From: a virus
Reading direction: 5' to 3' (one strand)
Length of the DNA stretch: 22,142 nt
IMG/VR virus record: IMGVR_UViG_3300030380_004425
Span: 4,715-26,856 of that record
Shown here: one piece after another, positions 4,634 to 17,670 of the stretch
Numbering within the stretch: position 1 is the first letter of the stretch
Layout of the letters: every line of letters starts with the position of its first letter
Translations under genes and position numbers: made by a program
Notes under the pieces: model-generated
Database searches by the model: none
What the model was told of the DNA's origin: nothing
What the model saw: only the letters and a program-made list of their open reading frames with translations

Positions 4634-6177
4634 TGGAAAAAACAACATTACGAATGATTGAAAAGTTTCAAAAAGCAAAAACAGATAGAGTGCTTTTTGA
4701 ATCATTGTTTGAAGAATGTTATGAATATGCAATGCCAATGCGCCAGAGTTTCTATTATGAATCTCCGGGGCAAAGGCGTGATGATAAAATATTTGATGAA
4801 ACTGCTGTTGTTGGTGTTCAGGAGTTTGCTTCACGATTGCAATCAGGGCTTGTACCAAACTTTGCAAGGTGGGCTGATCTTCTTGCTGGCAGTGAAATAC
4901 CAGAACAGAATCAAGATGATATTAACAATAGTTTAGATCAGGTAACAGATTATGTTTTTGAGATTATTCAAAATTCAAACTTCGGACAAGAAGTGCATGA
5001 ATCGTTTATGGACCTTGCTGTTGGAACAGGCATCTTACTTGTCGAAGAGGGTGATGCAGTTAATCCGATACGTTTTAACGCTATTCCATTACCGAGTGTA
5101 TATCTTGATACAGGTCCAGATGATAAAATTGATCATGTATATCGGCAACGTTCGCTCAAATATCAGGAGATACCTATTGCTTATCCTAAAGCAGAAATAG
5201 GAGAAAAAACATTACGATCAATACAAACAAACCCTGATGCGAAGGTTGATATTGTTGAGATTGTTTGTCGTAATTACTCAAAGCCAAATCAAGATTTATT
5301 CGACTTTTTTGTAATTAATATACCTGATAAAGAAGAAATATTTAGTGATCAGTTTAGCGGCACTGGATCAAACCCATTTGTTTGTTTCCGCTGGTCTAAG
5401 GCTAGTGGAGAAATTTATGGGAGAGGCCCTCTTATCAATGCCCTTAGTGCGATTAAAACTACAAACCTAACAATTGAACTTGTTCTTGAAAATGCACAAA
5501 TGGCTATCTCTGGCATCTATCAAATGGATGATGATGGCATAATCAATACAGACACGATTAACCTTGTTCCCGGCACAATTATTCCTAAAGCTATGGGTTC
5601 TCAAGGTTTGCAGCCAATACGCAATGCAGGAAACTTTGATGTAGCAAATCTAGTTCTCGGCGATATGCGTAACAATATCAAACGCGCTTTGTATAATGAT
5701 ATGCTTGGTGATCCTAATAAAACGCCAGCATCTGCTACAGAAGTTGCAGAACGCATGGCTGATCTTTCAAGGCGAATTGGGTCTGCGTTTGGTAGGTTGC
5801 AGGCAGAAATGGTGCAGCCAATATTGCAACGTGTCGTGTATATCCTGAAAAAACAGGGACGCATTGAGTTGCCGACTATAAATGGCAGAGAGATAAAAGT
5901 GCGGTCTACATCACCATTAGCGCAAGCGCAGGCAAATCAAGACATAACATCTATCTCAAGATATTTACAATTAGTTGGTGGCACTTTTGGCCCTGAAATC
6001 CTTAATCTCCTAGTAAGCTCTGAAGATGTGGCTGTCCATTTAGCTAAAAAATTTGGTGTTCCTGATACTCTTGTTAGAGACAAGGTTGATCGTGAACAAC
6101 TTATTGCTGCTGCACAACAAATGGCGTCACAGCAACAACAGCAACAAATGATGGCTAGTGAGAATGTCCAACAATAG
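4630..6177 (+). CDS. Portal protein (T7 gp8-type head-tail connector)
   Basis: This forms the dodecameric ring at one capsid vertex, through which DNA enters and leaves and to which the terminase and tail attach. The 515-residue length suits the T7-like portal family (head-to-tail connecting protein). Recognisable segments are the N-terminal FDETAVVGVQEFASRLQSGL, then GRGPLINALSAIKTTN (from about residue 263) and the crown-proximal LYNDMLGDPNKTPASATEVA (from about 353), the last being typical of the family. The C-terminus is a low-complexity Gln run (QQMASQQQQQQMMASENVQQ). The start is one of two adjacent ATGs (4630 or 4633), coupled to the upstream stop. The 3' end overlaps the next gene. 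Confidence 0.95.
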   Translation: MMEKTTLRMIEKFQKAKTDRVLFESLFEECYEYAMPMRQSFYYESPGQRRDDKIFDETAVVGVQEFASRLQSGLVPNFARWADLLAGSEIPEQNQDDINNSLDQVTDYVFEIIQNSNFGQEVHESFMDLAVGTGILLVEEGDAVNPIRFNAIPLPSVYLDTGPDDKIDHVYRQRSLKYQEIPIAYPKAEIGEKTLRSIQTNPDAKVDIVEIVCRNYSKPNQDLFDFFVINIPDKEEIFSDQFSGTGSNPFVCFRWSKASGEIYGRGPLINALSAIKTTNLTIELVLENAQMAISGIYQMDDDGIINTDTINLVPGTIIPKAMGSQGLQPIRNAGNFDVANLVLGDMRNNIKRALYNDMLGDPNKTPASATEVAERMADLSRRIGSAFGRLQAEMVQPILQRVVYILKKQGRIELPTINGREIKVRSTSPLAQAQANQDITSISRYLQLVGGTFGPEILNLLVSSEDVAVHLAKKFGVPDTLVRDKVDREQLIAAAQQMASQQQQQQMMASENVQQ

Positions 6178-6433
6178 ACTTGGAATAGATAACTTTCCTC
6201 GCAAAATATCTGATGATAATGAAATCTCTCTTGATATTCGGGCTTTATTTAGAAGCCCGAATGGAGAGAAAGTTTTGAAATACTTGCGTTCTATTACAAT
6301 AGAAGCAGTAACCGGGCCAGCTGCTAGTGATGCAGAACTTCGGCATCTTGAAGGGCAGCGGTACATAGTGGGTCTTATTGAAAGACGAATGAAACATGCA
6401 GAAAAGGTAGAAAAAAATGGAACAAGCAGATAA
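6158..6433 (+). CDS. Bbp19-like small phage protein, 91 aa
   Basis: The gene begins within the end of the portal gene. GTG 6158 is the first possible start and ATG 6164 is equally plausible (MSNNRLGIDNFPRK). The core LFRSPNGEKVLKYLRS, then DAELRHLEGQRYIVGLIERR fits the small phage family I know as Bbp19, with an 'F.SP.G..VL..L ... EGQR..V..I' pattern. That family sits between portal and scaffold or capsid genes in several podoviruses, and its function is unknown. It is helical and charged. Its 3' end overlaps the scaffold start at 6417. It may take part in connector or procapsid assembly, by inference from position. Confidence 0.75.
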   Translation: MRMSNNRLGIDNFPRKISDDNEISLDIRALFRSPNGEKVLKYLRSITIEAVTGPAASDAELRHLEGQRYIVGLIERRMKHAEKVEKNGTSR

Positions 6434-7118
6434 TGTGGAAGTAGCAGAGGCTACAGAAGCACCTGTATCCACACGACCTGAATGGTTGCCTGAAAAGTTT
6501 GAATCACCAGAAGCTATGGCAAAGTCCTATGGTGAACTTGAATCTTGGAAAGGCAAGCGTGAAGATGATCTTCGTAGTGAAATAATTAGCCAAATGGAGC
6601 AGGAGGCATATTCAAATCGCCCTGCTACAGCTGGTGATTACTCTATGCCTGAAACTGTGAATGAAGAATTGGCTGTTGATAATGCATTATTTCAATGGTG
6701 GACAAATCATGCATTTGAAAATGGTTATAGCCAAGATGAGTTCGAGGATGGCATTAAGCAATTTAATGAAGCATTAGAAATGATGCAGCCTAACCTTGAT
6801 GAAGAAATTAAATCTCTTGGTGATAATGCTGATGCCAGAATTGAAGCTGTAAGTCTTTGGAGCCAAAAGTTCTTTCCAGAAGAATATGAAGATGTAATTC
6901 TTGGCATTGGACAATCTGCCAAAGGCATAGAGATGATGGAGTTTTTGATGCAACACGTTAAAGATGCATCTGTATCAAATGATGCTGGTGTAGCGCCTAG
7001 AACTACAGAAGATGATCTACGCACAAAAATGCAAGACCCACGTTATTGGAATCCTGTTAAGAGAGATCAAGCATTTGTTAGAGAAGTCGACGAAGGTTTC
7101 GCACAACTTTATCGCTGA
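6417..7118 (+). CDS. Scaffolding protein (T7 gp9-type capsid assembly protein)
   Basis: Scaffold directs coat assembly into a procapsid around the portal and is later lost. This 233-aa product is strongly acidic (Glu/Asp-rich throughout). It has the N-terminal RPEWLPEKFESPEAMAKSYG typical of T7-like scaffolds and a C-terminal coat-binding-like end, LRTKMQDPRYWNPVKRDQAF then VREVDEGF, also typical of the family. The middle is helical with low sequence complexity. It is somewhat shorter than T7 gp9 (about 300 aa). AAGG lies about 8 bases before the ATG. Its place immediately after the portal and before the coat region agrees, although one gene intervenes before the coat. Confidence 0.92.
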   Translation: MEQADNVEVAEATEAPVSTRPEWLPEKFESPEAMAKSYGELESWKGKREDDLRSEIISQMEQEAYSNRPATAGDYSMPETVNEELAVDNALFQWWTNHAFENGYSQDEFEDGIKQFNEALEMMQPNLDEEIKSLGDNADARIEAVSLWSQKFFPEEYEDVILGIGQSAKGIEMMEFLMQHVKDASVSNDAGVAPRTTEDDLRTKMQDPRYWNPVKRDQAFVREVDEGFAQLYR

Positions 7119-7134
7119 TTGCCCAATAGAAAGT

Positions 7135-7614
7135 GTGCAGATAGTCAAATCAACTGTTGAACATGCTGGCTATCTGCAACACCGACTAAGGCCATCTGAC
7201 GTAAGAGAGTGTCTAATTGCTGGTGTATCATCATGGAAAGCATTGCACGAGCCTTTGCGTGATAAGTATGGCAATACATGGACAATATTAATTGATGATG
7301 AGCCATGCGCTATGTTTGGCACATCAGACATGACAGATCGTGAAGATCTGCTATGTGGCTGCATATGGTTATTGGGCAGTCATTTATGTGAAGAAAAGCC
7401 TATAGTTTTTTGTAAGACGACAAAATACATTATAGAATCCCTACTTTTAGATTATGATATTTTAGAAAATTTAGTTCCTGTAGACCATGAAAGAACAATA
7501 AAGTGGCTAACTTGGCTAGGGTTTTCTTTTGCGAAAAAGCCAACATTTGTAAATGGATTCCAATGTATACGTTTTGTGCGTTGCAATAGTCGTTTAGATG
7601 TGGCATGGAGTTAA
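7135..7614 (+). CDS. T7 gp13-like (DUF2833, GNAT-like fold) protein
   Basis: The chosen start is GTG 7135 (159 aa). The frame stays open to ATG 7012, but that extension lies inside the scaffold gene and looks unlike the family. The product follows the DUF2833 pattern, which includes T7 gp13: HRLRPSDVRECLIAG near the N-terminus, then WTILIDDEPCAMFGTSDM, then a GCIWLLGS strand, and ERTIKWLTWLGFSF near the end. These match the beta strands and final 'IRWLRWLGF' element of an acetyltransferase-like fold. In T7, gp13 is needed for virion morphogenesis; enzymatic activity is not established. No clear Shine-Dalgarno is seen. Its place between scaffold and coat is unusual, because T7 keeps it after the tail tube genes. 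Confidence 0.8.
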   Translation: MQIVKSTVEHAGYLQHRLRPSDVRECLIAGVSSWKALHEPLRDKYGNTWTILIDDEPCAMFGTSDMTDREDLLCGCIWLLGSHLCEEKPIVFCKTTKYIIESLLLDYDILENLVPVDHERTIKWLTWLGFSFAKKPTFVNGFQCIRFVRCNSRLDVAWS

Positions 7615-7717: not shown

Positions 7718-8530
7718 ATGGCTAATACAATTGATCAAGCCTTTATCAAGCAGTTCGAGATTGATGTTCACCTTGCATATCAGCGTATGGGTTCAAAACT
7801 CCGCAACACTGTTCGCACCGCTGGTAATGTTCGTGGCAATGTTGTTCGCTTCCAGAAGATTGGTGCTGGATCAGCTAACACAAAATCTCGTAACGGTAAC
7901 GTAACTCCAATGGAACTCACACATACCAATGTTGAGGCGACTATGGAAGATTTCTATGCGCCAGAATTCATTGATAAGTTAGATGAGTTAAAAACCAATA
8001 TTGATGAGCGTCAAGCTGTGGCTCAATCAGCTGCTGCTGCTCTGGGTCGCAAGACTGATGAGATCCTGTATACAGCAATGGATTCAGGTGCAAACTCAAC
8101 TCAGATCCATGACACAGGCTCTGCTCTTGCTAAAGCTGATCTTCTTACAGTGTTTGAAACCTTTGGTTCTGCAAACATCCCAGAAGATGGTCAGCGTTAT
8201 CTTGCTATGCATCCAAAAGGATATGCGGATCTTTTCCTCATTGAAGAATTTGCTTCTTCAGATTATGTGGGCGAACAAAATCTGCCATTCGCTGGCGGCA
8301 TGACAATGAAAGAGTTCTTAGGCTTTAAAGTGTTCTCAACATCAGCAATTACAGCTGGTAAGAATATGGCTTACCACTCAACTGCTGTTGGTCTTGGCAT
8401 CAATTCTGATGTTCAGACAGAGATCAACTATGTTCCTGAGAAAGCTGCTCACCTTGCAACCTCAATGATGTCCATGGGTGCTGTTGTTATTGATGACAAT
8501 GGTGTCTATGAAGTCCTTGATAATAACTAA
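7718..8530 (+). CDS. Major capsid (coat) protein
   Basis: The 270-aa product matches the 'phage capsid protein' family with an HK97-type fold common in marine podo- and siphoviruses. The N-terminus is NTIDQAFIKQFEIDVHLAYQ then RMGSKLRNTVR. The centre includes VEATMEDFYAPEFIDKLDEL and NIDERQAVAQSAAAALGRKT, and the C-terminal strand is MMSMGAVVIDDNGVYEVLDN. The start has a strong AAGGAA. Codon use is visibly richer in C-ending and CGT/CGC codons than in the flanking genes, as expected for a highly expressed coat. It follows the scaffold (with one insert) and precedes the tail tube genes. No slippery site that could produce a fused longer form was found near its end. Confidence 0.93.
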   Translation: MANTIDQAFIKQFEIDVHLAYQRMGSKLRNTVRTAGNVRGNVVRFQKIGAGSANTKSRNGNVTPMELTHTNVEATMEDFYAPEFIDKLDELKTNIDERQAVAQSAAAALGRKTDEILYTAMDSGANSTQIHDTGSALAKADLLTVFETFGSANIPEDGQRYLAMHPKGYADLFLIEEFASSDYVGEQNLPFAGGMTMKEFLGFKVFSTSAITAGKNMAYHSTAVGLGINSDVQTEINYVPEKAAHLATSMMSMGAVVIDDNGVYEVLDNN

Positions 8531-8544
8531 GAAAGGGTAAGAAA

Positions 8545-8808
8545 ATGGCTTATAGCGCAGCAGGACTTACTCGTATCGGTGGTGCATCAAATGGTGATCT
8601 GTGGTTTTATTCAACAACCGATGCAATTGCGGCTGTCAACTCAGCAGGGTATTTTAATGATGCTGCTAATATGTTGTCTGTCCGTGATTTAATCATTGTT
8701 ACTGACACAAACACACCTACAACACATTTTGTAAATGTATTATCAAATACAGGTACAGTTGTGGATGTTTCAGATGGTACAGCTGTCGTCGAAACTGACG
8801 GTGACTAA
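8545..8808 (+). CDS. Small coat-distal protein, possible head decoration, 87 aa
   Basis: The ATG is preceded by GAAAGGG 7-8 bases upstream and lies 14 bases after the coat stop. The product, MAYSAAGLTRIGGASNGDLW followed by FYSTTDAIAAVNSAGYFNDA, then RDLIIVTDTN and a beta-rich Thr/Val end, has the AYSxxGLxxIG ... WxYxSxDAxxxVxxxGYF pattern I recall in small proteins next to coat genes of marine phages. No function is proven for them. It looks all-beta with no Cys, which would suit a capsid-surface or fibre-like decoration protein, but that is inference. Its stop codon overlaps the AAAGGAG motif discussed under the next regulatory entry. Confidence 0.8.
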   Translation: MAYSAAGLTRIGGASNGDLWFYSTTDAIAAVNSAGYFNDAANMLSVRDLIIVTDTNTPTTHFVNVLSNTGTVVDVSDGTAVVETDGD

Positions 8809-8855
8809 AGGAGTTTGGGAGGGGTCAATCCGAAACACCCCTCCCATATCATCAT
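8807..8855 (+). promoter_or_regulatory. Shine-Dalgarno + 10-bp hairpin before tail tubular A gene
   Basis: AAAGGAG (8807-8813) is followed by TGGGAGGGGT (8816-8825), an 11-base loop, and the perfect complement ACCCCTCCCA (8837-8846). Nine bases later comes ATG 8856. No other Shine-Dalgarno lies within 15 bases of this ATG and no alternative in-frame start exists upstream. Unfolded, AAAGGAG is 42 bases from the ATG. With the hairpin folded, only 2+9 = 11 unpaired bases separate them. The same position (after the coat gene) carries the terminator T-phi in T7, so partial transcription termination is the alternative, but there is no U-run after this stem (ATATCATCAT follows). The hairpin itself is certain in sequence; its role is inferred. 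Confidence 0.65.
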
Positions 8856-9440
8856 ATGCCAACTGTAGCTAATTCAGATATTGATATTGCATCAAGAGGA
8901 TTGCTCTTAATTGGGGCAGACCCAATATCTTCTTTTACATCTTCTTCTACAGAAGCAATTGTAGCAAACGCTATATATGAAGATGTAATTAGAACCATAA
9001 TGTGTTCTAGTCGTTGGCGATTTGCAACGAAACAAGCAGAGTTAAATTTATTAGCTGATGAACCAACAGGTCGTTATGATCGCGCACATCAACTTCCTTC
9101 TGACTTACTAATGCTTCATGCAGTTACTGTAAGTGATTTAATCATAGAGTATAATGTTTATACTGATAAAGTATTCAGCAATGCATCCTCTAACGATACT
9201 TTGATTGCTGATTATACATTCAGAGCAAAAGAAATAGATTTTCCTTCATACTTTACTCTTGCTGCTGAATTTTCATTAGGCGCTTCATTTGCACTATCCA
9301 TTGCAAGAGATGAGCAAATGTCAGCAATACTTGAAAGGAAGGCTGCTGACTTATTGCAGCAGGCTAAAACATTAGATAGTCAGCAACAAACAACACGAAA
9401 ACTTGTTACATCGAGGTTCATTACTGAAAGGCGAAGTTAA
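8856..9440 (+). CDS. Tail tubular protein A (T7 gp11-type gatekeeper)
   Basis: This forms the ring joining the portal to the tail nozzle. The 194-aa length equals that of the T7 family. Typical segments are the N-terminal helix IDIASRGLLLIGADPISSF, the CSSRWRFATKQAEL segment (about 50-63), RYDRAHQLPSDLLMLHAV (73-90), and a C-terminal helical bundle ending in FITERRS. The only usable start is ATG 8856, which lacks a nearby Shine-Dalgarno and is preceded by a strong hairpin. The stop overlaps the next start (TAATG at 9438-9442), so both tail tube genes are coupled and any control on this start would affect both. Confidence 0.92.
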   Translation: MPTVANSDIDIASRGLLLIGADPISSFTSSSTEAIVANAIYEDVIRTIMCSSRWRFATKQAELNLLADEPTGRYDRAHQLPSDLLMLHAVTVSDLIIEYNVYTDKVFSNASSNDTLIADYTFRAKEIDFPSYFTLAAEFSLGASFALSIARDEQMSAILERKAADLLQQAKTLDSQQQTTRKLVTSRFITERRS

Positions 9441-11674
9441 TGGCGCGAGTAAGAATACCGCTGAACAACTTTGTTTTTGGTGAGATAAGCCCGTCTTTGA
9501 ATAGTCGTGTGGATTCAGCTGTTTATAATCAATCTGGGCAATCTGTAAAAAATGTATTTATTAGAGCCGAAGGTGGCGTTATTAGCCGACCCGGTTCTAA
9601 AATGGTTCATAGTTTTACAGGTCATACATATAATAGCGCTTTAGCGCAGCAGATACGTATTGAGCCATTCTTGTTTTCAAGTGATGAGAAATATGTAGTT
9701 GCGTTTAGCGCTGGGCAGATTGATGTATTTAGGATAAATGCTGATGGTAGCTTCAATGCTAAAGTAGCTACTCTTACACAAGATACGGCAAGTACAGCGC
9801 TGCCATTTACAAATACAAATCTAACTGAGTTTACATATGCACAAAATAGTGACTTTATGTTTATTGCTCATAATGATTTCAATCCACTTACATTAGTCCG
9901 TACAGGTCTTACAAGTTTTGAAGTAAGACAGTTTGCTTTTGATACATCAGCTGATGGCAACAAAAAGCTGCAACCTTACTATAACTTTCAAGCATCCGGT
10001 GTAACCATTACCCCATCTGCAACAAGTGGCAATGGTATTACTATTACAACAAGTGCCAACTATTTTGATTCTGGTATGATTGGGTCAAGTTTGCTTATTG
10101 GCGAAACGCAAGTAGATATTACTGCTGTAACAGATGCTAAAAATGCAACAGCCAATGTGCAAGGCACAATACAAAGGCAGCTTGATTTTGATTCTCTAAA
10201 TACAACAGAGGGATCAGATAAAGTTCTTGTTATTATGTTGAATCATGGTCTTGCCGCTGGTGCGTCCATTACAATATCTGAAGCTGGTGCATTGGGTGGT
10301 ATAAACAATGGCAACATGAATGGCACAAGAACAATATCAAGTGTTGTTGATGAAAATAAATTTCTTTATACGGCGGGTGGGTCTGCAAGTTCTACAGCCA
10401 CTGGTGGTGGAACGCCTATTATTGCTAGTACAGCCGCACAAACTGAGTGGTTTGAGCAAGCGTATAGTACACACAGAGGCTTCCCAGCTGCTGTAACTTT
10501 TCATGAAAATAGACTTTGGTTTGGCGGCACACCATCTCAACCAAGCCACATATGGGCATCTGTATCAGATCAATTCTTTAATTTTGATGTAGGCGAGGGA
10601 TCATCTACTGACGCTATTGATTTAGAGGTAGCTGTTGGTGTTACAAACTTTATACGCCATTTAGTTTCTAACAGAGATTTACAAGTATTTTGTAATCAAG
10701 GCGAATTCTTTTTGCCAGCCTTTCAAGATCAGCCTATTACGCCGAGTATTGCAAAAGTCTCAGAACAAACGCCATTTGGTACAGGTTTTGTCAGACCTTT
10801 GTCATTAGATGGCGGGACTTTATTTATTCAGGAAACAGGCACAGCTGTAAGAGAATATATATTTAATGATGGTGAAGGTGCATATACAACAAATATGATT
10901 TCCATCCTTTCATCGCATTTGATATCAAATCCTGTGCAACTTACGTCTGTAAGAGGGTCTTTGGATAGGCCGGGTGCATATGCATTTTTCTTAATGGATA
11001 ATGGAGAAGTTGCAGTATTCTATAGCATTAGATCAGAAAAACGTGCTGGTTGGATGCGTTGGACAACCACAGGTAGATTCCATTCTGTTTGTGCTATAGA
11101 TGAAAATCTGTATGCAATTACAGTTAGAGATGATGGATCAGGTAGTAATAAATTATTTTTAGAAAGTTTTGATAAAACACTTAATATGGATTTTAGTAAT
11201 ACATTCAGCGGCTCTGCTGGTGTGTTTTCTGTATCATCTCATTTTTCAAATGGTGCGGTTGTAGATGTTATTGATGGCTCTCAATATTTGGGACAGTTTA
11301 CTGTTGCTGGTGGTAATTTAGACGTTAGTTCTGTAAAAGAATCCACTTCTATTCAAGTTGGCTATAAGTTTACACCAGAGTTAAAAACGATGCCTGTAGA
11401 TGGACAGGTTCCGGGTGGCCCATTAACAGGTAGGCCTAGAAAAATAAGTAATATTGTTTTAGATATTCAAGATACATTTAGTATTTCAGTTAATGGCAAA
11501 AGTATTATTTTGAGGGATGTAACGTTCGATCCGTCTGTATCGCCAACAGCATTTACTGGCAAAAAAGAGTTTAGAGTTCTTGGGTATAGCAAAGATCCAG
11601 CAGTTACTATTTCCCAAACAGATCCTTTGGGGCTGCAATTGAACGGCATGATAGTAGAGGTGGCTTTCTCATGA
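9440..11674 (+). CDS. Tail tubular protein B (T7 gp12-type nozzle)
   Basis: This large protein (744 aa, close to the T7 family's roughly 800) forms the distal nozzle of the short tail. Recognisable parts are the N-terminal RIPLNNFVFGEISPSLNSRV, then SVKNVFIRAEGGVISRPGSK, and the central FHENRLWFGGTPSQPSHIWA (from about residue 353), followed by a long beta-propeller-like body. AAAGGCG precedes the ATG, which overlaps the stop of the gp11-type gene. Residues about 190-340 (Thr/Ser/Gly/Ala-rich) look like an inserted beta domain typical of variable regions in this family. The stop overlaps the next start (ATGA at 11671-11674). Confidence 0.93.
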   Translation: MARVRIPLNNFVFGEISPSLNSRVDSAVYNQSGQSVKNVFIRAEGGVISRPGSKMVHSFTGHTYNSALAQQIRIEPFLFSSDEKYVVAFSAGQIDVFRINADGSFNAKVATLTQDTASTALPFTNTNLTEFTYAQNSDFMFIAHNDFNPLTLVRTGLTSFEVRQFAFDTSADGNKKLQPYYNFQASGVTITPSATSGNGITITTSANYFDSGMIGSSLLIGETQVDITAVTDAKNATANVQGTIQRQLDFDSLNTTEGSDKVLVIMLNHGLAAGASITISEAGALGGINNGNMNGTRTISSVVDENKFLYTAGGSASSTATGGGTPIIASTAAQTEWFEQAYSTHRGFPAAVTFHENRLWFGGTPSQPSHIWASVSDQFFNFDVGEGSSTDAIDLEVAVGVTNFIRHLVSNRDLQVFCNQGEFFLPAFQDQPITPSIAKVSEQTPFGTGFVRPLSLDGGTLFIQETGTAVREYIFNDGEGAYTTNMISILSSHLISNPVQLTSVRGSLDRPGAYAFFLMDNGEVAVFYSIRSEKRAGWMRWTTTGRFHSVCAIDENLYAITVRDDGSGSNKLFLESFDKTLNMDFSNTFSGSAGVFSVSSHFSNGAVVDVIDGSQYLGQFTVAGGNLDVSSVKESTSIQVGYKFTPELKTMPVDGQVPGGPLTGRPRKISNIVLDIQDTFSISVNGKSIILRDVTFDPSVSPTAFTGKKEFRVLGYSKDPAVTISQTDPLGLQLNGMIVEVAFS

Positions 11675-12204
11675 GTTGGGCTTATGCATTATTAGCGATT
11701 GGAACTGCTTTAGACATTACTGGCAGGCAACAAGCTGCTGATTTTGAAAGTATTAGACAGCAAAATATTGCAAGACAAGCAAAAGAAAATGCAGAAATGG
11801 CAAAGCTAAATGCTGAACGTCAATCAACTGCACGATCTGAAGCGTATACAAAGTTTCTTCGCAATTCATCTGCAATAGCTGGATTTAATAGACGAGGTGA
11901 TGATCGTTCTTTAAGGGCCATACAAAAAGCTGGAAGAGAACAAACACAAGAAGAGTTGACAGCTATTAGATTGCAAAGTTTGTTTGCAAGAGGAAGGTAT
12001 CAGTCTCAAGCATCATTTGCTTTGGCAGAAAGTCAAGCAGCACAAGACGCTGTATTAATGGGCCAGATTTCTACATTAGTTGAAAATGGTTATAGAATGG
12101 CTCAAGTTTCAAGTGATAATTCAAGCGCAACATCAGGTTATACAGCGCCTAGTTATGGCATGTCTCCAGCTCAACAATTAGCAAGATATGGGCGGGTAAC
12201 GTAA
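11671..12204 (+). CDS. Internal virion protein B-like (T7 gp14-type ejection protein)
   Basis: The 177-aa product begins with a short hydrophobic stretch (MSWAYALLAIGTALDITGRQ) and continues as a long Ala/Gln/Glu/Arg helix (QQNIARQAKENAEMAKLNAE and onward). Glycine-containing turns (AIAGFNRRGDDRSLRAIQKA) are typical of gp14-like proteins that form the outer-membrane pore during DNA ejection. The length is near T7 gp14 (196 aa). Position directly after the gp12-type gene and before two very large internal proteins matches the T7 order 14-15-16. GAGGTGG lies upstream and the start overlaps the previous stop. Its own stop directly abuts the next ATG at 12205. Confidence 0.85.
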   Translation: MSWAYALLAIGTALDITGRQQAADFESIRQQNIARQAKENAEMAKLNAERQSTARSEAYTKFLRNSSAIAGFNRRGDDRSLRAIQKAGREQTQEELTAIRLQSLFARGRYQSQASFALAESQAAQDAVLMGQISTLVENGYRMAQVSSDNSSATSGYTAPSYGMSPAQQLARYGRVT

Positions 12205-14343
12205 ATGGCTGAAATAAAAGTATTAAAAGGACAGCAAACGCAAGTTGGGCCGATTGGCATTGTTCAAATGGGGTCTGCTGGTATTCGTGCTGGGCAACAG
12301 CTTCAGGAAACTGGTGAACGAATTTTTAATATGGCATTCAAAGTTGCCTATGAAAACGAAAAACAAAAAGGTCAACAAGAAGCTAGTCTTGCTGCAATAA
12401 GCGCAAGAGATCCTAAAACTGGCAAACTTGTTTTTCCTGAAATTCCAAAATCTATGTCTCCTGTTGCTCAAAAGTATTATGAGCCAATAGCAAACAAGCG
12501 TTATCAAGATGCCCTTCTTCTTGATATTGACGAAAATGCTAAACGTATTGCTGCTCAAACAGAACGCAATCCTCAAGAGTTTGCAAAACAATTCCAAAAC
12601 TATTTGGATACTACCAGCAGAAATGCTGGCAAGTTTGGTGGATTTGTTGAGTCAACAGGCGCTGTTACATCAAAGCAATATCAAACAAAGTTATTTATCG
12701 ATGATGTTGAGTTTCAAGATAAATTAGCATCACAAAATGCTGTAGTTACATTATATAAATCTGTTGATGATATTGAAGCAATGTCAAGAAGTGGCGCTAC
12801 TGGCTCTGCTAGAGCAATGCTTGATTCAAAGATGGAAGAGCTTCAAGGCTTTATGGCAGAACATGGTGATCGTGTAGGGCAAGCATTTCAGATTGAAATG
12901 ATGAACAAGCTGCGCGGTGCATTTGTGGGCGGCGATCTTGTTAATATTAGAAATAAGTTAGCAGATATATTCCCTTCAGTTGACCCATATTCATCTAGTC
13001 CACAATTATCTGTTGCTTTGAATCAAATGGCTATAGCCATTGAAGATAGATCTTTGAAAAATGTTCCGCAGATTTATAGGGAAGCGTTAGAAAAAGCTGG
13101 TCTAAAAGAATCATATCTTAATGATAGTGTATTTGCTGGTTTGCATCGTGAAATGGCAAGGCAAGTTCGTACTGCACAAGGCACTGTGCAAGAAGCTGCG
13201 AATCAAAGAAAAGATCAAATGTTACGAGCAGTTGCAGCTGATACGCTTGCAAATGGTGGGGATCTTACATCTGATCAAGGTGATTTAATATTAGAAGGCG
13301 CAAGGCTAAGAACATCTGTAGATCTTAAAAACAATCTTGCTGCTGTTTTGATGCGTCCAGAAGATCCTATTGCAGCCCAGCAATGGGACAATTTTTTTGG
13401 ATCAACACATCAACTGTTATTTAATACCGAAAGTGCCTTGCCAAAAGTAATTAATAATTATCTTGATGGCGTAATGACTATGAACGCAGAGCAATTACCA
13501 GTTGCTATTGCTTTGTATCAACAAGCTACTCGTTTTAATCGCGGTAATAGAATGGATATAAATCATCGTGGATTAAGTGATACAACTGTTATGGCCTTTG
13601 AAACATTAATTAATGTACGTGATGTTTTAGGCGATGAGCGTCTTCCTGAATTTATGAATAGCTTTAGATTAAAAGATAAAGCCACAGGCGACGAAATTAG
13701 AGGAAATATAAATTCTAAATTAGGTAAAGAAGATGGTTCTAATTATAGACGGAATGTTCGTGAATTTGTAAAAAATAACATTAATGAAAATGCATCAGAA
13801 GATGAAATACAATTTTATACACGATTTGCTGATGATCTTCTTTTTACAATGGATGCAAATTCTGTTCAAAGAATATTAAAATCAGCTGGTGATGCTGTGT
13901 TTAGTACAAGCAAATATCTTCACAAAACACTTGGACGTTCAAGGTTTACACCTGAACGTGCTTATCCAAACTCTGGTGATATGAAAATATTTGAAAAAGC
14001 TGTTAGTCTAAAATTGTCTGCAATTAATCCAGATCTTAAACTAGGTAAAGATGTATTTTTAGTTCCAGATACAAGAGAGGGTTCAGCTTTACCTGTGTAT
14101 ACCCTTGTTGATAGAGATAAAAACATTCTTCGTATTAATGGAAAGCCAGCAACTGTTGGAAACCAATATGTTGTTGAAGAGCTTGCGAAGCGGCGCAATA
14201 TAAGTATTGCTAAACTTAGGTTGCAAGCCGTTGCATCACGTGAGTTGTTTATTAGAAATCAAAAATTATTTGAATCTCTTGATGATCCGCAAGGTGGGCC
14301 AAACATTTCTGAAATACGAGAAACAGTTCGTAATAGGAAGTAA
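12205..14343 (+). CDS. Internal virion protein C-like (T7 gp15-type ejection protein)
   Basis: The 712-aa, mostly helical protein starts immediately after the preceding stop, with GGCGGG about 9 bases upstream. The N-terminal QVGPIGIVQMGSAGIRAGQQ and the next helical stretch (ERIFNMAFKVAYENEKQKGQ) resemble gp15-like proteins of T7-type podoviruses, which form a periplasmic tunnel during ejection. T7 gp15 is about 747 aa. I see no transglycosylase or peptidase motif and no signal peptide. The assignment rests mainly on length, helical make-up and synteny; sequence identity to T7 itself would be low. It is followed by AGGAAG and the gp16-type gene 3 bases later. Confidence 0.82.
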   Translation: MAEIKVLKGQQTQVGPIGIVQMGSAGIRAGQQLQETGERIFNMAFKVAYENEKQKGQQEASLAAISARDPKTGKLVFPEIPKSMSPVAQKYYEPIANKRYQDALLLDIDENAKRIAAQTERNPQEFAKQFQNYLDTTSRNAGKFGGFVESTGAVTSKQYQTKLFIDDVEFQDKLASQNAVVTLYKSVDDIEAMSRSGATGSARAMLDSKMEELQGFMAEHGDRVGQAFQIEMMNKLRGAFVGGDLVNIRNKLADIFPSVDPYSSSPQLSVALNQMAIAIEDRSLKNVPQIYREALEKAGLKESYLNDSVFAGLHREMARQVRTAQGTVQEAANQRKDQMLRAVAADTLANGGDLTSDQGDLILEGARLRTSVDLKNNLAAVLMRPEDPIAAQQWDNFFGSTHQLLFNTESALPKVINNYLDGVMTMNAEQLPVAIALYQQATRFNRGNRMDINHRGLSDTTVMAFETLINVRDVLGDERLPEFMNSFRLKDKATGDEIRGNINSKLGKEDGSNYRRNVREFVKNNINENASEDEIQFYTRFADDLLFTMDANSVQRILKSAGDAVFSTSKYLHKTLGRSRFTPERAYPNSGDMKIFEKAVSLKLSAINPDLKLGKDVFLVPDTREGSALPVYTLVDRDKNILRINGKPATVGNQYVVEELAKRRNISIAKLRLQAVASRELFIRNQKLFESLDDPQGGPNISEIRETVRNRK

Positions 14344-14346
14344 TTT

Positions 14347-17300
14347 ATGAGTATGATGGATATAAATAGAAGAGACTTCTTTGTTCCTATACCTGCTTCA
14401 ATAAGTGATGATACTCCCGCTACTTGGTTTGAGGGATTCAAAGCAAATGTAGCTTATAACAACATGCCTTTGATTGAGCGTGTGCAGGAAGAAAAGTTGT
14501 TTGGTAATGCAACTATTGATCCTGATTTTGATGTTGCTGCAAATATATCTGAAGATCTTCTACCGTTTTATGATGATCTTGTGCGAGCAAAAAATGCAGA
14601 ACATCTTCAATATCTTGAGGGTCGTGCATATGAAGCTATCAGACGCAGAGAGATGGCTGCTAATGCTGGGATTACTGCACAGCTTGCAGGGGGGTTAGCA
14701 GACCCACTGGCGCTTGCTGCGTTTATTCCCGGCCTCAACTTTATAAAAGCTGGCAAAACCTTTGGACAGGCTGTTTTGAGGGCTGGTGGGGCTGGTCTTG
14801 GTTATGGCCTAGCATCAGAGGCAAGACGCGCACCTTTTGCTGTGGCTGATGAAAGGTTTGAGGCCGCATCAAACATCGTTGCATCTACTGCTATATCAGC
14901 TGGTTTTGGCGGGTTACTCAAAGGTGCTGGATATGCAATGCCATTTATTAAAAGCAGTGCTGGTAAAATGGGCAGGGTTTATCGCGGTGAAAAGTTTTCT
15001 CATGTATGGGGAGACAACAAGGTAAATCTTGATGAAGATTATGTTGAGGCTGTCGGTGGTGACTTTGATATTACTCAGATGAACTGGATTGGCAGCGACA
15101 TCCATAAAATACTAGCTGATAAAACAATACCTCAAGAAGCTAAAGAGTTACTTGTTAAGTTGAGTTACAATGGCTCTGTACCATTGCAAGGTGCAAGACG
15201 CGGTCATGCAACACAATCTGTTGCACAAGAATCTATTACATATATTGGCGCATTTGAGCGTATGAGCATGCGTATGCGTGATTTGCACTCTCAACAAGTT
15301 CGTGGCATTGCAAAAGCAGCAAGGGTTGGAACTATATATGATCCTACAAGTGGCTTTGATGCTTGGGCATCTGACACAATCAAGCGTTATATTCTTTCCA
15401 ACTCTAAAGACCCTCAACTTAGACGGATTGGTACAGAAGGTATAACAGACCAGCAAAAAGAGGCTGGTGTTTTGTTATCCGACATGCTTCGCACTATGGC
15501 TGAGGACATGGAGTTCAATGGCCTTACAAGAAATGATGCACGTTTGAAGAAGGAAATATCATTCTTTGAAAAAGATATTGTTAGCATTGAAGATTCTGTA
15601 ACAAAGAAAACAAAGCTTTTGGCTGATATTGAGGATACTGTAAAGCGTCAACAAGGTGGTGGCGCAACATCAAAGCAAACTAAAAAGATGCGTGATCTTG
15701 AAAACGAGATAGGCGCTTTGAGAGCAAGGGTAGTAGATAATCAAGGCAAGATAAATGAACGCCAAGGTTTATTAGGTAAGGGTATATCTAAAGAAGATTT
15801 TATCTTTCCATTGTTTTACAACAAAGGGAAGTTAATGGATGATGCTGAAAGAGAGTTGCTTACACAGGTATTTGCAGAAGATTTTTTATTACAACGGGCA
15901 GCTAAAGGTGAAAGGGCTGATATATATGGCACCAGAGCAGATGCTGAAACAACACTTGCTAGAATAATGGAAGAAGATGGTGAAGATTTTGGTGTAGATT
16001 TTGAGAATGTAAGAGGCAGCCCTACAAAAGAAGCAAAAGCAAAGCACCTGAAGCGCCGTAAAACAAATATAGACCCAGCAAAAGTTGTAGATTTTATTCA
16101 TGCAGATTTAGAAGCTGTGTTTACATACATGGATCGTATGGGTAGGCGCATATCATTTGCTAATAAATATGGTGGCAGAAATGTCGACGAGGTTATGAAA
16201 GACCTTGATACCATTCTTCTCAAAGCTGGCAAAAGCGACAAAGAAAGAGCAAGGGTAAAGACAGCTTTCTATGGTGACTATGAACGCGTTATGGGTACAT
16301 TTCTTAGAAGCGCAGATAGATTTGATACGCAGCTTGCAAGGGCTGTAAAAGCGTGGACAGGCTGGGCGTTCTTGCCACTAGCTGGTGTGTCTGCAATTAC
16401 AGATGCTGGATCTATTATTCTTGCTCATGGTATGAGGGATGTTATTGCAGCTGGGTTTGCTGCTACTGATACAGCTTTTCTTGGTAAGGTTATAAGAGAA
16501 GGGCAGCTATCAGGCGAGTTGCTTGATATTGCTAAGAATGTTTATGCAAGAGAAATGCTTAACGATACTGTTCGTAAAGTAAAACCAAACATGTTGGAAA
16601 AGGTAATCCAACGTGGCAATCAGTTTATGTATACTGCTAATGGCCTTGCTCCTATTACCTTCATTGGCAAAACATTAGATCAACTTATTATTAATGATAA
16701 ATTTATTAAGCTTTCTCGAAAGTGGGCAAGCGGCTCTATATCAAAGTTTGATAGAGAGTATCTTGCTAGATATGGCATCGATGAGGATATGGCTAAATTT
16801 ATAGCTAAAGCACCTACAGAAAAGCATGATAGGTTTGATTTTGAGTTTGCTAATACAGACGCTTGGGATCAGTCAACACCAGCTGCACGTAATGTCATGC
16901 GTAAATATCAAGCTGCATTAGCTTCCCATGCTAATAATACTATTGTTATGGGGCAGACTTTTGATAAGCCATTAATTGTAGATGGCGTTGTTTACATGCG
17001 TGATAATCCATTTTTTCAATCAATACGCAAAAGATTCCCAACTCAATTTAAGATTGAGGAGCGTTTACGCACAGGGCAAGTAAATATGGTGCGCGTTGAG
17101 AGCGGTCTTATGTCGCTGCCATTTACATTTATGAACTTTACGTTTGGTGCAAATAATAAGATTCTTGGGGCTATAAGAGATCCCAATAGACAATATCGAT
17201 TGCAAGGCGTGGCTGCTTTAATTGGTTTGTCATATCTTTCATTGTCTATGAAAAAACCTGACTATTGGTTTGAGAAGCGTAAATCACCAGAGGTGATTGC

Positions 17301-17628
17301 ACGAATTATAGATCACTCTGGCGTCTTGGGTATTTACTCTGATCTTGCATATATGGGATTAAATATTGCTGGTAATATGGGATTGCCAACTCCTATACCA
17401 CCAAAATTTGTTAGCCCAAATAAAGATGAACGTATGATGGATGCATTTATTGAGCCATTTGGTGCGCCAGCTAGCCTTGTCACAGAATATGGTAGAGCAT
17501 TAAATGATTTTATGAATGGAGAAACATCAGATGCATCTGAAAGATTAAAGTATTCTTTGCCATTTATAGGTCTTCATCCAATTAGAGATGATATGCGTGA
17601 TTTTATTGGAAGTGTTGGAAGGAATTGA
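14347..17628 (+). CDS. Internal virion protein D-like (T7 gp16-type ejection protein)
   Basis: At 1093 aa this is the largest complete gene in the window. It follows the gp15-type gene and precedes the tail fibre, as gp16 does in T7. AGGAAG sits a few bases before the ATG. Residues about 105-205 hold Gly/Ala-rich hydrophobic stretches (ITAQLAGGLADPLALAAFIP, then AGGAGLGYGLASEA). Residues about 398-473 are coiled coil (ISFFEKDIVSIEDSV through ENEIGALRARV). Further hydrophobic segments lie near 668-700 (WTGWAFLPLAGVSAITDAGS) and 953-968 (VAALIGLSYLSLS). These could insert in the host inner membrane during DNA ejection. I do not find the lytic transglycosylase N-terminal domain present in T7 gp16 (no ES...GLMQ-type motif), so cell-wall opening may lie elsewhere. 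Confidence 0.85.
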   Translation: MSMMDINRRDFFVPIPASISDDTPATWFEGFKANVAYNNMPLIERVQEEKLFGNATIDPDFDVAANISEDLLPFYDDLVRAKNAEHLQYLEGRAYEAIRRREMAANAGITAQLAGGLADPLALAAFIPGLNFIKAGKTFGQAVLRAGGAGLGYGLASEARRAPFAVADERFEAASNIVASTAISAGFGGLLKGAGYAMPFIKSSAGKMGRVYRGEKFSHVWGDNKVNLDEDYVEAVGGDFDITQMNWIGSDIHKILADKTIPQEAKELLVKLSYNGSVPLQGARRGHATQSVAQESITYIGAFERMSMRMRDLHSQQVRGIAKAARVGTIYDPTSGFDAWASDTIKRYILSNSKDPQLRRIGTEGITDQQKEAGVLLSDMLRTMAEDMEFNGLTRNDARLKKEISFFEKDIVSIEDSVTKKTKLLADIEDTVKRQQGGGATSKQTKKMRDLENEIGALRARVVDNQGKINERQGLLGKGISKEDFIFPLFYNKGKLMDDAERELLTQVFAEDFLLQRAAKGERADIYGTRADAETTLARIMEEDGEDFGVDFENVRGSPTKEAKAKHLKRRKTNIDPAKVVDFIHADLEAVFTYMDRMGRRISFANKYGGRNVDEVMKDLDTILLKAGKSDKERARVKTAFYGDYERVMGTFLRSADRFDTQLARAVKAWTGWAFLPLAGVSAITDAGSIILAHGMRDVIAAGFAATDTAFLGKVIREGQLSGELLDIAKNVYAREMLNDTVRKVKPNMLEKVIQRGNQFMYTANGLAPITFIGKTLDQLIINDKFIKLSRKWASGSISKFDREYLARYGIDEDMAKFIAKAPTEKHDRFDFEFANTDAWDQSTPAARNVMRKYQAALASHANNTIVMGQTFDKPLIVDGVVYMRDNPFFQSIRKRFPTQFKIEERLRTGQVNMVRVESGLMSLPFTFMNFTFGANNKILGAIRDPNRQYRLQGVAALIGLSYLSLSMKKPDYWFEKRKSPEVIARIIDHSGVLGIYSDLAYMGLNIAGNMGLPTPIPPKFVSPNKDERMMDAFIEPFGAPASLVTEYGRALNDFMNGETSDASERLKYSLPFIGLHPIRDDMRDFIGSVGRN

Positions 17629-17670
17629 TTGTGCGTTGTAAATAAAGACAAAGCATGTTAGGGGATAATT
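17629..17670 (+). promoter_or_regulatory. Short spacer before tail fibre gene
   Basis: These 42 bases separate the ejection-protein block from the fibre block. They end in AGGGGAT about 5 bases before the ATG, a good ribosome site. No hairpin, palindrome or promoter consensus is visible. Confidence 0.4.

What the first reader, a model, noticed from the sequence alone, without database searches (positions are those of the whole stretch)
8806..8858. A hairpin that may bring a distant Shine-Dalgarno to the tail tube start
Seen: AAAGGAG at 8807-8813 overlaps the previous stop. A perfect 10-bp stem (8816-8825 with 8837-8846, 11-base loop) follows, and ATG 8856 has no other Shine-Dalgarno or upstream in-frame start. 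Folding shortens the gap from 42 to 11 bases. Known: T4 gene 38 uses a hairpin in this way, and T7 has a terminator (T-phi) right after its coat gene. Inference: folding controls translation of the coupled gp11/gp12-type genes, possibly together with partial termination. The stem also hides a second purine-rich run (GGGAGGGG).
Basis: partly seen in the sequence, partly recalled or inferred. Interest (0 to 1): 0.66.

Follow-up and report, generated by a model that had tools for sequence, protein, structure and literature searches.

The report
Hairpin-bridged ribosome site in marine phages
In a group of uncultured, mostly marine viruses of bacteria, the ribosome landing signal for a tail gene sits too far from the gene's start, and an RNA hairpin kept in nearly all members folds up to close the gap; the trick was known from two genes of phage T4, and here a whole virus group appears to depend on it.

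Summary
The junction between the 87-aa gene and the tail tube A gene consists only of a Shine-Dalgarno (SD) overlapping the stop codon, a perfect 10-bp hairpin, 9 nt, and ATG. Of 81 distinct junctions in the window's clade, 77 carry such a hairpin, with 30 different 5' stem strands, loops of 3-15 nt (often UUCG or GNRA types) and covariation above all shuffles. In 76 of 77 an SD lies directly before the stem; in 0 of 77 after it; none has a terminator U-tract. With the hairpin excised, SD-ATG spacing is 6-10 nt (median 7), like ordinary starts of the same phages (5-10, median 7); unfolded it is 24-44. More distant relatives keep a hairpin at the same place, but mostly with the SD after it, some as clear U-tract terminators. 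The best reading is a split ('accommodated') ribosome-binding site as in T4 genes 25 and 38, evolved on the site of an older capsid-tail boundary hairpin and apparently arisen more than once. Partial termination is not supported here. Translation itself was not tested. Three relatives lost SD and hairpin together.

The parts
7718..8530 (+). major capsid gene
   Evidence: phrog_3437 major head protein, E 9.8e-58
8545..8808 (+). 87-aa gene before the junction, probably a small head protein
   Evidence: phrog_18004 unknown function, E 4.5e-19; absent in 17 of 77 clade junctions, where the element follows the capsid gene directly
8806..8808 (+). stop codon TAA, overlapping the SD
   Evidence: sequence; the stop-to-stem interval of relatives is little more than stop plus SD
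8807..8813 (+). Shine-Dalgarno sequence AAAGGAG of the split ribosome-binding site
   Evidence: duplex -8.2 kcal/mol with the 16S tail; SD at this place in 76 of 77 distinct clade junctions
8816..8825 (+). 5' strand of the stem, TGGGAGGGGT
   Evidence: pairs with 8837-8846
8826..8836 (+). 11-nt loop (UUCG, GNRA or other loops of 3-15 nt in relatives)
8837..8846 (+). 3' strand of the stem, ACCCCTCCCA
   Evidence: mean pairing probability 0.97 in context
8847..8855 (+). linker TATCATCAT, no SD, no U-tract (7-12 nt in relatives)
8856..9440 (+). tail tube A (gp11-type adaptor) gene, start ATG 8856
   Evidence: phrog_394 tail protein, E 3.7e-31; start conserved in relatives
9440..11674 (+). tail tube B (gp12-type) gene, ATG overlapping the previous stop, with its own nearby SD
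   Evidence: phrog_376 tail protein, E 1.9e-112; AAGG at spacing 5

Best explanation
8806-8858 is a split (accommodated) ribosome-binding site. The SD overlaps the stop codon of the previous gene, and the stem-loop behind it folds during transcription and stays folded as the 30S subunit binds. The SD is thereby presented 11 nt from ATG 8856 instead of 42, so that the tail tube A gene is translated efficiently. Shown: the anatomy, its conservation in a whole clade, the covariation, the conserved virtual spacing, the absence of an alternative SD and of a U-tract. Inferred: that ribosomes use this SD with the hairpin folded, that the hairpin descends from an older hairpin or terminator at the capsid-tail boundary, and that ribosomes ending the previous gene may be handed to this SD.
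For: 77 of 81 distinct junctions of the clade keep the hairpin, 76 of these 77 with an SD directly before the stem and 0 of 77 with one after it. Virtual spacing is 6-10 nt (10th-90th percentile, median 7) against 24-44 real, while 164 ordinary starts of the same phages have 5-10, median 7. There are 30 different 5' stem strands; parsimony gives several changes of pair type at most stem positions and 22 changes of hairpin length. On 21 sequences 95% of cells pair, with 15 double changes against 3.8 expected, 0 of 500 shuffles as high, and the slid controls lower. A blind scan for SD, stem of at least 7 bp, 5-12 nt, ATG over 5.3 Mb (both strands) gave 191 hits, all but two apparently at tail tube A starts. 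When the 87-aa gene is missing, the element stays with the tail gene (17 of 77). Many loops are UUCG or GNRA, which stabilise RNA. The mechanism has been shown by experiment in T4 genes 38 (22 to 5 nt) and 25 (27 to 11 nt) (PMC3014915).
Against: No translation, probing or toeprint data exist. Three relatives (L404, L405, L407) do without hairpin and SD. Pelagiphages of the Hodr clade have a hairpin here and no SD on either side (0 of 33), so the hairpin has or had another role as well. L377, L380 and L408 have virtual spacings of 14-16. In many relatives the SD is partly paired in the predicted ensemble (median unpaired 0.39).
Confidence: 0.8

Rival explanations
1. The hairpin is mainly an mRNA 3'-end stabiliser or decay barrier that protects the abundant capsid message (as hairpins inside operons can do), and its place in the ribosome-binding site is incidental.
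For: A stable hairpin sits at this boundary in the related clades too, also where it does not separate SD and ATG; G+C-rich stems with UUCG or GNRA loops suit this role.
Against: It does not explain why in this clade the SD is always upstream and never downstream, why the SD touches the stem, or why the virtual spacing equals that of ordinary starts. Three relatives dispense with it. It could coexist with the split site.
Confidence: 0.1
2. It is an intrinsic terminator or attenuator like T7 T-phi that lowers tail gene transcription relative to capsid.
For: Same position as T-phi, the only terminator for the phage RNA polymerase in T7, with genes 11 and 12 made only by read-through (PMC5592923); Vibrio 1.138 and YeP5 have U-tract terminators at this junction.
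Against: 0 of 77 clade members have 6 or more T in the 8 nt after the stem, and only 3 of 77 have a T-run of 4 or more in the first 10 linker nt; the window hairpin is followed by TATCATCAT.
Confidence: 0.04
3. Tail tube A is translated by termination-reinitiation from the previous gene; the SD holds the terminating ribosome, and the hairpin merely occupies or limits the gap without bridging.
For: Stop codon and SD adjoin or overlap in most members; L404, L405 and L407 start 5-6 nt after the stop without SD; coupling of genes 10 and 11 was predicted for T7 (PMC5592923).
Against: Plain coupling would not conserve a stable stem with compensatory changes, nor a fixed virtual spacing while hairpin length varies from 18 to 35 nt. 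Coupling in addition to bridging is quite possible.
Confidence: 0.06

Closest known systems
Phage T4 gene 25 split/accommodated ribosome-binding site (gene 26-25 junction)
   Same: Distant SD near the end of the previous gene, hairpin between SD and AUG, spacing cut from 27 to 11 nt (here 42 to 11), conserved in one group of phages and absent in more distant ones (PMC3014915)
   Different: Unrelated phage and gene (T7-like order, tail tube A); here the stem is very stable and its sequence, length and loop vary widely; it lies where relatives have a capsid-tail hairpin or terminator; not tested by experiment
Phage T4 gene 38
   Same: Hairpin between SD and AUG reduces spacing, 22 to 5 nt (PMC3014915)
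   Different: Different gene and phage; the hairpin here is larger and the final spacing 11 nt in the window
T7 T-phi terminator after gene 10
   Same: Hairpin or terminator at the capsid-to-tail-tube boundary (PMC5592923)
   Different: No U-tract in this clade, and the SD lies before the hairpin, not after it

Membership tests
Split (accommodated) ribosome-binding site, T4 gene 25/38 type | SD too far from the start codon to work directly | tested here: met
   42 nt in the window; 24-44 nt aligned spacing in 76 clade junctions against 5-10 for ordinary starts
Split (accommodated) ribosome-binding site, T4 gene 25/38 type | Stable hairpin between SD and AUG that restores a functional spacing | tested here: met
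   Hairpin in 77 of 81 distinct junctions; virtual spacing median 7 nt
Split (accommodated) ribosome-binding site, T4 gene 25/38 type | No other SD near the start | tested here: met
   0 of 77 with an SD in the linker
Split (accommodated) ribosome-binding site, T4 gene 25/38 type | Structure conserved with compensatory change in relatives | tested here: met
Split (accommodated) ribosome-binding site, T4 gene 25/38 type | Destabilising the stem lowers translation; structure seen by chemical probing | not testable with these tools
   Needs reporters and probing
Intrinsic (T-phi-like) terminator | Hairpin directly after the capsid block | tested here: met
Intrinsic (T-phi-like) terminator | U-tract after the stem | tested here: not met
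   0 of 77 with at least 6 T in 8 nt
mRNA-stabilising operon hairpin | Longer life of the upstream transcript segment | not testable with these tools
   Needs RNA decay data
Any RNA family described in Rfam 15 | Match to a covariance model | tested here: not met
   No match in the window, nor at E up to 1 in 8400-9300

The most novel reading that the evidence does not exclude
The hairpin at the capsid-tail boundary of T7-like phages, in origin a transcription terminator or mRNA 3'-end element with the SD behind it, has been turned repeatedly (window clade, and separately L418/L434, L512 and L525) into the spacer of a split ribosome-binding site, keeping a boundary function while setting the tail-to-capsid translation ratio.
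Probability: 0.35. Interest if true: 0.65.

Novelty: new member of a known kind. Interest (0 to 1): 0.5.

Why it matters
Hairpin-bridged ribosome sites were known to me from two T4 genes. Here one is the nearly fixed state of a gene in a whole phage clade, with dozens of natural variants of stem, loop and length. That points to selection on the folded spacing and not on the sequence, and gives a ready set for testing how large a folded insert the 30S subunit tolerates between SD and AUG. It also warns that start-site and expression predictors that require an SD within about 15 nt will call such genes SD-less.

Tried and rejected
Intrinsic termination in this clade: rejected for lack of a U-tract; only considers loops of 3-8 nt, so its silence alone proves nothing. 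An alternative upstream start or a fused reading frame: no in-frame start in 74 of 77, and the stop-to-ATG gap falls in all three frames, which also speaks against ribosome bypassing. Known RNA families: none. A second copy elsewhere in the genome: none found; the weak covariance-model hit at 5413-5440 lies inside the portal gene and is probably chance (one search also missed the window's own junction at its stricter threshold, so it adds little). A host or prophage relative in genome contigs: none. A phage RNA polymerase: none found in 10 records, but the positive control did not ring either, so nothing follows. The MAFFT alignment A2 is out of register between stem families, so pairs were counted on the subset A3 and by position from the stem base instead. 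The first stem census missed stems because of a faulty stop-codon search and was redone.

Full report
Observation. The gene before the junction is an 87-aa protein (phrog_18004), preceded by the major capsid gene; the gene after it is the tail tube A protein (phrog_394), followed by tail tube B (phrog_376). The window is part of a 26,856-base virus record. Only 1 of 2000 dinucleotide shuffles of the 62 nt before ATG contains a perfect stem as stable, and the window has no other perfect non-palindromic short-loop inverted repeat of this length.

Relatives. Scans of IMG/VR with tail tube A and known phages gave several hundred junctions. The window's clade is a supported group of 80 rows in the protein tree (SH-aLRT 96), and in it I find 81 distinct junctions. 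77 have a perfect stem better than -6 kcal/mol (median -17.8). L392 has a hairpin with a larger loop that my search excluded (seen by eye). L404, L405 and L407 have none. 76 of the 77 have an SD of -4.5 kcal/mol or better directly before the stem, the 77th (L402) has -4.2, and none has one in the 7-12 nt linker. The interval from stop codon to stem is little more than stop plus SD (TAATAGGAG, TAGGAG, TAAAGGAGTT, TAAGTAAGGAG and so on). In 17 of 77 the 87-aa gene is missing and the element follows the capsid gene directly, so it stays with the tail gene start.

Selection on structure. Stems differ widely: 30 different 5' strands, loops of 3-15 nt, with UUCG and GNRA types the most frequent. On the tree, most stem positions need several changes of Watson-Crick pair type, and hairpin length changes 22 times; these counts start from stems chosen for being perfect, so they describe variation and do not by themselves prove pairing. 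The separate count on a fixed alignment is better evidence: 95.2% of cells paired, 15 double changes against 3.8 in shuffles (0 of 500 as high), and every slid control is lower. A covariance model built without the window finds the window junction as its best hit (E 0.0013) and finds the junction in most clade members tested.

Spacing. Aligned SD-ATG spacing with the hairpin removed is 6-10 nt (10th-90th percentile), median 7, full range 4-16; with the hairpin counted it is 24-44. In the same phages 164 SD-bearing starts of other genes have 5-10 nt (5th-95th percentile), median 7. The match is the strongest argument that the hairpin is looped out in the initiation complex. In the local ensemble the stem forms with median probability 0.99, while SD and AUG are partly accessible (0.39 and 0.46; window 0.68 and 0.44). 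A blind scan for the arrangement over all loci, 5.3 Mb counting both strands, returned 191 hits, all but two of them apparently at tail tube A starts.

Other clades. A hairpin at the same boundary is found well beyond the clade with the split site, so it is probably older. Relatives of the OM43 phage MEP301 have the SD after the hairpin (24 of 24 with a scored stem), as do most far relatives (37 of 43). Vibrio phage 1.138 and Yersinia phage YeP5 have U-tract terminators there, and MT838907 looks the same. Pelagiphages of the Hodr clade have a hairpin and no SD on either side (0 of 33), and the Baldr clade a hairpin with an SD after it in 11 of 41. Outside the window clade the SD-hairpin-ATG order recurs in L418/L422 (22% identical tail protein), in L512, with a weaker SD in L513, and by eye in L525. 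L434 (same contig as L418), L512 and L513 do not group with the window clade, which suggests more than one origin. L512 and L513 lie together with L508, which has its SD after the hairpin, and long branches make this part of the tree uncertain. Exchange of the element by recombination is also possible.

Mechanism. The best-supported reading is the accommodated ribosome-binding site shown by experiment for T4 genes 38 and 25 (PMC3014915). Gene 25 is a close parallel: spacing 27 to 11 nt, and restricted to one part of a phage group. The T7 T-phi terminator, after which genes 11 and 12 are made only by read-through (PMC5592923), is the right comparison for position, not for mechanism in this clade. 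A further role in message stability or in handing on ribosomes from the previous gene is possible and untested. The three relatives that lost SD and hairpin together start 5-6 nt after the stop codon, as expected if the two parts work as one unit and reinitiation can replace them.

Limits. No isolate of the clade was found in the phage collection (best 43% identity), so the host is unknown; the ordinary SDs of other genes in the window indicate a host with a normal anti-SD. Function is inferred from sequence only. Class labels rest on energy thresholds and deduplication by upstream sequence, and many sequences are close relatives. My statement that hairpin-bridged sites were known only from T4 rests on memory and on a literature search limited to open-access papers.

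Noticed in passing
L078 and L079 (IMGVR_UViG_3300046167_000222, 58,582 bases): One contig carries two copies of the tail tube A region, at 11088-17669 and 46555-53136, with different hairpins (GGGGGGAAG and GGGGGAGAG stems): two related phages joined, or a chimeric assembly.
   Followed up: no
L082 (OQ414635) and L085 (OQ414636): Locus tags appear swapped in GenBank: the Hodr record bears EXVC032PBaldr tags and the Baldr record bears EXVC031PHodr tags.
   Followed up: no
L090 2501-3067 (MW202742): A tail tube A homologue is annotated 'major capsid protein'.
   Followed up: no
window 8910-8926: A second short hairpin with a T-rich tail (ATTGGGGCAGACCCAAT) lies inside the tail tube A gene, about 55 nt after its start; flagged as terminator-like. 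L404 has a similar one in the same region.
   Followed up: no
L082 and L091-L170 (Hodr-type pelagiphages): The same boundary hairpin is present in all 33 distinct junctions, with no SD on either side; how these tail genes are started is open.
   Followed up: partly
L171-L250 (OM43-phage type): The boundary hairpin is often flanked by TGCA on both sides, which may form an outer stem; the SD follows it.
   Followed up: no
window 7012-7614: An ORF matching phrog_308 (internal virion protein) overlaps the preceding ORF 6417-7118 by about 100 nt in another frame and lies just before the capsid gene; its true start is uncertain.
   Followed up: no
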